Below are positions 19,423 to 22,592 of a stretch of 64,000 nucleotides of DNA, piece by piece. The notes below the pieces were generated by a model. That model was given only the letters and a program-made list of their open reading frames with translations. It was not told the origin of the DNA and did not search any database. Where the stretch lies: positions 1 to 64,000 of the forward strand of contig CACNWC010000001.1 in NCBI GenBank assembly GCA_902624075.1, read 5' to 3'. The stretch's first letter is position 1, and each line of letters opens with the position of its first letter. Source of the stretch: an uncultured Pelagibacteraceae bacterium (GTDB taxonomy: Bacteria; Pseudomonadota; Alphaproteobacteria; Pelagibacterales; Pelagibacteraceae). The position numbers were made by a program, and so were the translations under genes.

Positions 19423-19745
19423 CATATCTCGTTAATGACAAATGTATTAAATGTAAATACATGGATTGTGTTGAGGTATGCCCTGTTGATTGTTTTTATG
19501 AAGGTAAAAATATGCTTGTAATTAGACCTGATGAGTGTATAGATTGTGGCGTTTGTGAACCAGAATGCCCAGTGGATGCAATTAAAGCAGATACGGAACC
19601 TGGTAGCGAAAAGTGGTTAGAAATAAATACAAAATATTCTGAAATCTGGCCAAATATAAGTGAAAAAAAAGATCCACCTTCGGATCATGAAAAATATAAA
19701 GATGAGCAAAATAAGTTTGAAAAATATTTTAAAGAAAACATTTAA
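19419..19745 (+). CDS. fdxA: Ferredoxin (7Fe/8Fe, FdxA type)
   Basis: [21 protein letters not shown] and [16 protein letters not shown]. Confidence 0.94.
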
Positions 19746-20562
19746 GAAAAAAACTAAAGCTAAAAAAAAAAAAGTAGTAACAAAAAAAAAGCTTACTAAA
19801 ACCAAAACAAATCCTCTTAAAAAAACAAAAAAAATTTCAAAAATCAATAAAAGAAAAATTTCTAAAATAGAGGATAAAAAAAATGAATCCAAAACCGATA
19901 ATTTAAGAATCGCAAGAAACAACGAAGTTAAGCCTGAAATTAAAAAAGTAAAAAAACAAGAAACAGAAAAAAGAGAATATAAAATTAAAGACTATATTGT
20001 TTATCCAAAACATGGCGTGGGGCAAATTACAGAATTTAAAAAAATTAATATAGGTGGAATAGATGTTGAAACCTATATAATTAAATTTGAAAAAGATAAA
20101 GCTAATGGGATGGTGCCAGTAAATAAACAATCTCATTTACGACCATTAGCAACTATAAATCAAGTAAATAAATGTATCTCAATACTTAAGAGTAAACCAA
20201 AAATAAAAAGATCAATGTGGAGCAGAAGAGCACAAGAATATGAAGCAAAGATTTCTTCAGGAAAGATTTATGAATTGGCAGAAGTTGTTAGAGATTTAAA
20301 TAAAGGTGATGATCTTATGGTAGATCAATCATACAGTGAAAGACAACTTTTTGAGAAAGCTTATGATCGTATGTTAACAGAATTTCAAATTATATTAAAT
20401 TTTTCTCTAGAAGATACTCAAAAGAAACTAGATAAAGCACTAAAAAGAAATCAAGATAATCAAAATAAAGCTATTCAAATTCCTCCTAAAAATAAAGAAA
20501 CTGAAACTGATTTACCAGTTCAAGATAATCTTCCTGATAATGAGGAACAGTTAGAAGAATAA
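19687..20562 (+). CDS. CarD family transcriptional regulator with Lys-rich N-terminal extension
   Basis: CarD domain [38 protein letters not shown]...MVPVNK; start uncertain (GTG 19660, ATG 19687 or ATG 19702). Confidence 0.88.
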
Positions 20563-20563
20563 A

Positions 20564-20604
20564 AAAAACGCCTCTCACACATCACGTTATGAGAAGCGTT
20601 TTTA
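20564..20604. terminator. Bidirectional rho-independent terminator
   Basis: AAAAAACGCCTCTCA...TGAGAAGCGTTTTT, one mismatch in the stem, A-run on the left and T-run on the right, between convergent genes. Confidence 0.85.
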
Positions 20605-20623: not shown

Positions 20624-20695
20624 TTATCTTCTTCTTCTTTTTTTCTTAGCTTTCTTTTTAGCTTTCTTTTTAGCTTTTTTTCTTCTTTTAGCCAT
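20624..20695 (-). CDS. 23-aa ultra-basic peptide MAKRRKKAKKKAKKKAKKKRRRR
   Basis: Read by eye from the reverse strand; SD AAGGGAG eight nt upstream of ATG, candidate promoter upstream, terminator downstream; too short for the ORF track. Confidence 0.75.
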   Translation of the reverse strand: MAKRRKKAKKKAKKKAKKKRRRR

Positions 20696-20716
20696 CTTTA
20701 GCTCCCTTTTGTTAAA

Positions 20717-20733
20717 CGAATCAAATTGATTCG
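20717..20733. promoter_or_regulatory. Perfect 17-bp palindrome CGAATCAA-A-TTGATTCG with two GANTC sites, in the leader of the basic-peptide gene
   Basis: Direct reading of the sequence; GAATC and GATTC in opposite arms. Confidence 0.55.
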
Positions 20734-20744
20734 CGATTACCTTA

Positions 20745-20773
20745 TTTTTATTTTTTTATATACGTTATGTCAA
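20745..20773 (-). promoter_or_regulatory. Candidate sigma70 promoter for the basic-peptide gene: -35 TTGACA, -10 TAAAAA, 17-bp spacer
   Basis: Reverse-strand ttgacataacgtatataaaaaaataaaaa. Confidence 0.45.
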
Positions 20774-20891: not shown

Positions 20892-22592
20892 TTAATAAAG
20901 TTTTTCTAAATCTTCTTTGTATTTTTCTAAAATTTTTTTTCTTTTTAGTTTTAAAGTTGGTGTTAACATTCCATTATCAATTGTAAATTCTTCTTTAATT
21001 AATTTAAATTTCTTTACTTTTTCTACTGAAGATAAACTTTTATTTAAATTTTCTAAATAATTTTCAATTGTTTCTCTATTTTGTTCAGTTTCACTCACAA
21101 TTAATGCAACTAAATAATTTTTTTTATCTCCATAAACGAAACTTTGTTTAATTTTTTCCTCTAAACATAACAAATTTTCAATTTTAGATGGAGAAATGTT
21201 ATCTCCACCAAGATTTACTATTATTTCTTTCTTTCTATCTGTTATTTTTAAATTACCATCTTTGGTTATCTCTCCTATATCACCAGTATGTAACCAGCCG
21301 TCCTTAATTATTTCATTTGTTTCTTTTTTCATATTCCAATATCCAAGCATAACATTTTCACCCTTTACCAATATCTCACCATCATTAGCTATCTTTACCT
21401 CATTTGTTTTAAAAGGCGGTCCCACAGTTTCAATTTTTATTTTTTCTGGAATATTACAACTTACAACTGGTGATGTTTCTGTTAAACCATATCCTTGCAA
21501 TGTTTGTAATCCTATAGAGTTCAAAAATTCACCTATTTTTTGATCTAGAGCACCTCCTCCAGAAACAAAAGCTTTTAATTTGCCTCCAAACTGTTTTTTA
21601 ATTTTTTTCCTAACTAATTTTTCACATAAAAAATCTATAATTTTTTCTTTAAAATTAAGCTTTTCTTTATTCAAATTTTTTGTTCCAAGCAATATGGTGC
21701 TGTCAATCATTTTTTTCTTAAAACCTTTTTGTTTTAAAAAGTTTAGAGAAATTTTATTATATAAATTTTGATAAAATCTTGGGACAGCTGTCATTATAGT
21801 TGGTTTCGCTATTAGCATATTAGGTAGTAATTTTTCTAAACTTTCTGCATAGTAAATTTTTGCACCTAATGATATTTGCACAAATTGTACTGTATGTTCG
21901 TATGAATGAGACAAAGGAAGCCATGTTAAAAATACAGGAAGACCATCTATTAAAAGTGTTTCTAAAATTTCATTTGCACCTTCACAATTAGATAATATTC
22001 CTCCATGACTAAGCATCACACCTTTAGGATTACCAGTTGTGCCTGAAGTATAAATAATACACGCAAGATCTTTTCTCATTAATTTATTATTGTAATCATT
22101 AAAAATATTGATTGTCTCATTATTAAAATTTTTTTCTAAAATAGTTTCAATGTTTTCAATTTCTTGGCTAAAATTTTCAATTGATATAACTTTAATTTTA
22201 TTTGAAATAAATTTTTCGATTTTTTTAAATTGAAAATTATTAGAAACTATACATATTTTAGGTTTACAGTCATTTAATATATACTCGTAATCTTTTTCTG
22301 AATACGTTGTAAATAATGGAACTGTAACTCCACCTGCATTCATAATTGCTATATCGGCAATTAACCACTCTGGTCGATTTTCAGATAACAAAACACATCT
22401 ATCACCTTTAGATAAATCTTTTTTTAAATGCTCTGACAATAAGCAAATATTATTTTTAACTTGTGCCCATGTTAAAAAATCACTATTATTTTTTTTTAAC
22501 CATTTTAAAAATGGTTGATTTTTAAATTCTTTTTTTTCTTTATACTTTTCAAAAAAAAGTTCTACTAAGCTATTGACTTTATTTAATTCCAT
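20892..22592 (-). CDS. AMP-dependent synthetase / long-chain fatty acid-CoA ligase
   Basis: YTSGTTGNPKGVMLSHGG, QGYGLTETSPVVS, GWLHTGDIGEI, DRKKEIIVNLGGDNISP. Confidence 0.93.
   Translation of the reverse strand: MELNKVNSLVELFFEKYKEKKEFKNQPFLKWLKKNNSDFLTWAQVKNNICLLSEHLKKDLSKGDRCVLLSENRPEWLIADIAIMNAGGVTVPLFTTYSEKDYEYILNDCKPKICIVSNNFQFKKIEKFISNKIKVISIENFSQEIENIETILEKNFNNETINIFNDYNNKLMRKDLACIIYTSGTTGNPKGVMLSHGGILSNCEGANEILETLLIDGLPVFLTWLPLSHSYEHTVQFVQISLGAKIYYAESLEKLLPNMLIAKPTIMTAVPRFYQNLYNKISLNFLKQKGFKKKMIDSTILLGTKNLNKEKLNFKEKIIDFLCEKLVRKKIKKQFGGKLKAFVSGGGALDQKIGEFLNSIGLQTLQGYGLTETSPVVSCNIPEKIKIETVGPPFKTNEVKIANDGEILVKGENVMLGYWNMKKETNEIIKDGWLHTGDIGEITKDGNLKITDRKKEIIVNLGGDNISPSKIENLLCLEEKIKQSFVYGDKKNYLVALIVSETEQNRETIENYLENLNKSLSSVEKVKKFKLIKEEFTIDNGMLTPTLKLKRKKILEKYKEDLEKLY

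What the first reader, a model, noticed from the sequence alone, without database searches (positions are those of the whole stretch)
20624..20773. Unlisted 23-aa ultra-basic peptide gene (MAKRRKKAKKKAKKKAKKKRRRR) with full expression signals
The reverse strand encodes a peptide of only M, A, K and R with a repeating KKA/KKKA pattern like histone H1 tails. Expression signals are in place: TTGACA -35 with a plausible -10, an AAGGGAG Shine-Dalgarno at correct spacing, and a rho-independent terminator shared with carD. About 200 bp is devoted to it in a genome with almost no spare intergenic DNA. A nucleic-acid-binding or nucleoid role is an inference from composition only.
Basis: partly seen in the sequence, partly recalled or inferred. 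Interest (0 to 1): 0.68.

Follow-up and report, generated by a model that had tools for sequence, protein, structure and literature searches.

The report
Tiny conserved histone-H1-like SAR11 peptide gene
SAR11, the commonest ocean bacterium, carries next to carD an unnoticed gene for a 21-35 residue peptide made almost only of lysine, arginine and alanine; its sister family has a 40-99 residue histone-H1-like protein at the same spot, so the peptide is probably a miniature DNA- or RNA-binding protein.

Summary
The promoter, ribosome-binding site, 23-codon frame and terminator are all at the stated places. A strict pattern for the unit matches 230 of 297 Pelagibacteraceae species genomes, with no control hits. 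Of 61 genomes with an assembled carD, 60 have it; in the exception carD sits at a contig end. In the family members read in full, crown-genus peptides are 21-35 aa, only K/R/A plus rare P/T/G, charge +16 to +24, with whole-codon repeat changes and mostly silent third-position changes.

The sister family AG-422-B15 (SAR11 clade II) has at the same locus, behind the same promoter-hairpin arrangement, a 40-99 aa protein of KKAAPKKK repeats, plainly histone-H1-like. Early-branching genera have 31-50 aa intermediates. The 23-mer is therefore most likely a streamlined H1-like polycationic nucleic-acid-binding protein, made from its own short mRNA that starts with a conserved hairpin found nowhere else in the genomes scanned.

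Binding, target (DNA, rRNA or both) and expression are not shown. Standard proteomics would miss it, because trypsin cuts it to fragments. An RNA-only gene, a leader peptide and a chance frame are disfavoured. A ribosomal role stays open.

The parts
20624..20695 (-). 23-codon gene, MAKRRKKAKKKAKKKAKKKRRRR, net charge about +18
   Evidence: conserved frame; pN/pS 0.19 for close pairs
20768..20773 (-). -35 box TTGACA
   Evidence: kept in all units with a readable upstream region
20744..20750 (-). -10-like TAAAAAT (weak; assigned by spacing)
20717..20733 (-). hairpin CGAATCA-ATT-TGATTCG at about +4 of the inferred transcript; only such site in the genome
20702..20706 (-). Shine-Dalgarno GGGAG, 6 nt before ATG
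   Evidence: [A/G]GGAG present in 88 of 89 units
20564..20603 (-). intrinsic terminator, probably shared with convergent carD
   Evidence: stem sequence differs between genera but pairing is kept
19660..20562 (+). carD/cdnL, convergent neighbour, with a lysine-rich N-terminal extension (true start probably near 19690)
20892..22592 (-). long-chain acyl-CoA ligase (AMP-binding), gene upstream on the same strand

Best explanation
This is a real, separately transcribed gene for a miniature histone-H1-like protein. Shown by sequence: its own promoter arrangement, a conserved 5' hairpin, Shine-Dalgarno, frame and terminator, in nearly all Pelagibacteraceae and, as a 40-99 aa form, in the sister family. 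Inferred: the short leader hairpin stabilises or tunes the mRNA; the peptide (+16 to +24 in 21-35 residues, no acidic or bulky hydrophobic residue) is disordered or an alanine-striped helix that binds nucleic acid by charge, most likely as an auxiliary nucleoid factor beside HU/IHF, and it shrank from the longer KKAAPKKK-repeat ancestor during genome streamlining.
For: Frame: 69 Pelagibacteraceae peptides hold only M,K,R,A,P,T,G; the other two frames give stops or acidic residues; lengths change by whole codons or KKA units; close pairs show pN/pS 0.19. Ubiquity: 230 of 297 genomes, 112 of 127 near-complete ones, 0 controls; 60 of 61 genomes with carD. Synteny between fadD and carD in every family locus long enough to test. 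Sister family: 11 of 11 loci with MEELKVIFAKARKKAKKKAAPKKK-type proteins, promoter and hairpin alike, again in 5 named records. Intermediates of 31-50 aa in early genera. H1-like repeat domains of this kind bind DNA in Pseudomonas AlgP/PhaF (PMC9239181), and one is fused to CarD in Anaeromyxobacter (PMC9304148).
Against: No expression or binding data. The orthology of the short and long forms rests on locus, promoter, hairpin and composition, since low complexity defeats alignment statistics, and the fadD-side neighbour differs in the sister family. Three HU/IHF proteins are already present. My arithmetic: neutralising even half of about 2 million phosphates at +18 per peptide would need over 50,000 copies, so it cannot be the main compacting agent.
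Confidence: 0.68

Rival explanations
1. A small ribosomal or rRNA-binding protein, working like bTHX, bL37, bS22 or archaeal/eukaryotic eL41: the peptide threads into rRNA grooves.
For: Size and charge fit such proteins (own knowledge); near-universal and single-copy in the family.
Against: Repeat number and length vary freely (21-35 aa within one genus, 40-99 aa in the sister family); no family match in Pfam or NCBIfam, though these tools are weak on low complexity. The one PDB hit of the long form, a ribosomal L29 chain, has E 0.52 and is not significant.
Confidence: 0.15
2. The functional product is the RNA (a small RNA with 5' hairpin and terminator, or an antisense regulator of carD) and the frame is incidental.
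For: Hairpin and terminator are strongly conserved; the 3' end faces carD.
Against: Shine-Dalgarno kept in 88 of 89 and start codon in all; whole-codon length changes from 66 nt to 300 nt including the stop; frame-specific composition and mainly silent change. No Rfam family above its threshold.
Confidence: 0.06
3. A binder of other polyanions such as polyphosphate granules, as reported for AlgP.
For: AlgP, H1-like, spaces polyphosphate granules (PMC9239181).
Against: The gene is present in complete genomes with neither PPK1 nor PPK2 (G003, G005, G009, G022).
Confidence: 0.05
4. A leader peptide or regulatory upstream ORF that senses lysine/arginine supply.
For: Very short and very rich in two amino acids.
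Against: A terminator follows at once and the next gene (carD) is convergent, so there is nothing downstream to control, in every locus tested.
Confidence: 0.02

Closest known systems
Bacterial histone-H1-like lysine-rich proteins (Chlamydia Hc1/Hc2, Pseudomonas AlgP and PhaF C-terminal domains)
   Same: K/A(/P)-rich short repeats; length varying by repeat number as in Hc2 (PMC2848022, abstract)
   Different: 21-35 aa in most Pelagibacteraceae instead of over 100; more arginine, almost no proline; stand-alone with no other domain
H1-like/HMGA-like tail of myxobacterial CarD (PMC9304148)
   Same: K/A/P-rich DNA-binding tail linked to a CarD-family protein
   Different: here a separate gene beside carD; SAR11 CarD has its own lysine-rich extension at the N-terminus
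Ultra-basic ribosomal mini-proteins (bTHX, bL37, bS22, eL41; from own knowledge)
   Same: about 25-35 aa, very rich in K/R
   Different: repeat-based, variable length, no aromatic or hydrophobic anchor residues
sORFs reported in SAR11 strain HIMB5 intergenic screens (PMC6429828)
   Same: short conserved frames in SAR11 intergenic DNA; this locus might be one of the three sORFs counted there
   Different: the main text names none of them and gives no function; the table is in a supplement I could not read

Membership tests
Bacterial histone-H1-like proteins (H1 C-terminal-tail type) | Lysine- and alanine-rich composition with short basic repeats, no acidic residues in the repeat region | tested here: met
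Bacterial histone-H1-like proteins (H1 C-terminal-tail type) | Proline in the repeats (KPAA, KKAAPKKK type) | tested here: inconclusive
   Met in the sister family and partly in early genera (g5, g12); the 23-mer itself has none, and its crown relatives only a P at position 2
Bacterial histone-H1-like proteins (H1 C-terminal-tail type) | Length change by repeat gain and loss | tested here: met
Bacterial histone-H1-like proteins (H1 C-terminal-tail type) | Match to a curated family model | tested here: not met
   No Pfam or NCBIfam match for the short or long forms; such models are poor at low complexity, so I say it works like an H1-like protein but do not file it in any curated family
Bacterial histone-H1-like proteins (H1 C-terminal-tail type) | DNA binding and nucleoid location | not testable with these tools
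   needs EMSA and microscopy
HU/IHF nucleoid proteins | PF00216 fold | tested here: not met
   No Pfam match; the genome has three true HU/IHF genes elsewhere
Structured RNA family | Match to a known Rfam family at threshold | tested here: not met
Leader peptide / uORF | Regulated gene downstream on the same strand | tested here: not met
Small ribosomal protein | Presence in the ribosome | not testable with these tools
   needs ribosome structure or mass spectrometry

The most novel reading that the evidence does not exclude
SAR11 uses the smallest known gene-encoded histone-H1-like (protamine-like) nucleoid peptide, cut down from a 40-99 aa ancestor by genome streamlining, regulated through its 5' hairpin and working together with CarD, whose own tail is lysine-rich.
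Probability: 0.25. Interest if true: 0.8.

Novelty: new variant of a known kind. Interest (0 to 1): 0.6.

Why it matters
A near-universal gene of one of the most abundant organisms on Earth appears to have been overlooked: it is below the usual size limit of gene callers and trypsin destroys it, so annotation and proteomics would both miss it. The size series (99 to 21 residues at one locus) shows how far a polycationic chromatin-type protein can be reduced, and it makes the minimal DNA-binding requirement and nucleoid control in streamlined cells directly testable.

Tried and rejected
A search of the long form against 144 alphaproteobacterial genomes gave nothing, not even in the window's own genome, so it is uninformative; probably low complexity is filtered out. 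A codon-pattern search worked instead and found KKAAPKKK proteins in two further small-genome alphaproteobacteria, both within 4-7 kb of carD. No adjacent H1-like ORF was found beside carD in 75 named and 40 unnamed other alphaproteobacterial loci (the few hits are short frames of other composition). The second and third matches in the window's own genome are not copies: one lies in a low-complexity repeat tract, the other is a 28-base start-site resemblance. A regulon operator was rejected: the palindrome occurs only at this locus in the genomes scanned. Polyphosphate binding was weakened by the absence of PPK1/PPK2. Papers on SAR11 transcripts and intergenic regions gave no statement on this locus; supplements could not be opened. 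Anti-Shine-Dalgarno pairing in the leader is strong in two early genera (g9, g12) but not in the window's lineage, so it is not claimed as the mechanism.

Full report
What was claimed and what is there. All are in the sequence: frame 20695..20624, TTGACA 20773-20768, GGGAG 20706-20702, terminator 20603-20564. The intergenic stretch between carD and the fadD gene is 329 bases, 22% GC; the unit itself is 28%. By single-sequence scan the promoter is not above chance. A lysine/arginine frame in A-rich DNA is only moderately surprising: about 0.1% of Markov sequences of the same composition read only K, R, A, T. So the case had to be decided by comparison.

Conservation. A DNA search found the unit in 283 of 297 genomes of the family, but this count includes weak matches. 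A stricter pattern (hairpin arm, Shine-Dalgarno, start and first codons) matches 230 of 297 genomes, 112 of 127 near-complete ones and 11 of 14 genera, with no hit for the reversed control. Absences look like assembly gaps, as far as tested. Of the 61 family genomes in which carD was found, 60 match; in the other (G152) the carD match ends 183 bases from the contig end; and the three without carD (G146, G190, G018) lack both.

Coding or RNA. In 69 of 70 family loci read in the first round, the frame runs from ATG to a stop with 21-35 codons; the other, L034, has a one-base homopolymer change in a MAG. The peptides hold only K (most), R, A and rare P, T, G, with charges of +16 to +24. The two other frames give about 18% stops or 15-20% glutamate, so the composition is frame-specific; close pairs have pS 0.192 and pN 0.036. 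Length changes are whole codons, often KKA units. This is protein-level selection, not just purine-rich DNA.

Locus and leader. The order fadD > peptide > terminator < carD holds in every family locus long enough to test. In 88 of 88 readable units CGAATC lies 38-42 bases after the first base of TTGAC, which places the hairpin at about +4 of the transcript (inferred). In most lineages its loop varies from 3 to 5 bases and its 3' arm varies (GATTCG, GATTTG with a G-U pair, TGATTC); in the early genera the pairing shifts to neighbouring bases, with a stem kept. The first 34 leader bases fold at -8.0 kcal/mol on average against -1.6 for shuffles. The palindrome was found at this locus and nowhere else in the seven genomes scanned, so it is a leader feature of this gene and not a regulon operator. 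The invariant CGAATC arm is unexplained. In genera g9 and g12 a second helix pairs CTCC with the Shine-Dalgarno (unpaired probability 0.01-0.03), but not in the window's lineage (about 0.5).

Origin. The sister family, identified as AG-422-B15 (SAR11 clade II; clade name from own knowledge) by record titles, has at the same place and strand beside carD, behind TTGACA and the CGAATC hairpin, a 40-99 aa protein such as MEELKVIFAKARKKAKKKAAPKKKRKAAKRKPAKKKAAPKKKK...AARRKKRR. Early genera of Pelagibacteraceae have 31-50 aa forms such as MAKKRKKAAKKKAPAKKRKAAKKTTKKKAKKRKR. This is a graded series at one locus. In the sister family the fadD side differs. Two other alphaproteobacteria carry KKAAPKKK proteins close to carD but on the other side of the helicase-fdxA-carD group: G374 (about 144 aa; its single 1,410,127-base contig suggests strain HIMB59, from memory) and G483 (about 58 aa). 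Because such repeats arise easily, homology of these two is a lead and not shown.

How it probably works. Shown: gene, frame, leader, terminator, composition. From the literature: K/A/P-rich H1-like repeats bind DNA in AlgP, and the like domain of PhaF is thought to (PMC9239181); an H1-like tail is part of CarD in Anaeromyxobacter (PMC9304148). Inferred: the peptide binds DNA and possibly rRNA by charge. HU/IHF are present in three copies. By my arithmetic it cannot neutralise the genome, so an auxiliary or local role is likelier than bulk compaction. Polyphosphate as the main target is disfavoured. A ribosomal role is open.

Prior knowledge. No match in Pfam or NCBIfam. Literature searches found no SAR11 H1-like protein. 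A screen of strain HIMB5 intergenic regions mentions at least three unnamed sORFs with peptides of unknown function (PMC6429828), and an earlier screen of Pelagibacter ubique excluded unannotated coding stretches listed in a supplement (PMC2704228); either could include this frame. The function assignment, the size series and the link to H1-like proteins were not found anywhere I could search.

Noticed in passing
window 19660-20000 (+): CarD/CdnL here has a lysine-rich N-terminal extension of about 100 residues; similar tails occur across SAR11 (about 60-119 aa), very H1-like in G374 (L226), and K/A-rich ones in some other alphaproteobacteria (L142, L148).
   Followed up: partly
L003:1521-1562 (own genome C4, near 46239): A possible 13-aa short ORF MAKKDYPSQYNRS with the same GGGAGCTAAAGATGGCTAA start context, inside an inverted repeat (GATAGTCCTT ... 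AAGGACTATC) upstream of another small gene.
   Followed up: no
L082-L085, L088 leaders: In genera g9 and g12 the leader pairs CTCC with the Shine-Dalgarno, which would allow translational (possibly autogenous) control; absent in the crown genus.
   Followed up: partly
L226:5301-5735 and L227:2386-2610: H1-like KKAAPKKK proteins in two other small-genome alphaproteobacteria, beside a ccmA-like ABC gene and near the helicase-fdxA-carD group.
   Followed up: partly
L034: One MAG carries a one-base homopolymer change that extends the frame to 47 aa; probably an assembly error.
   Followed up: no
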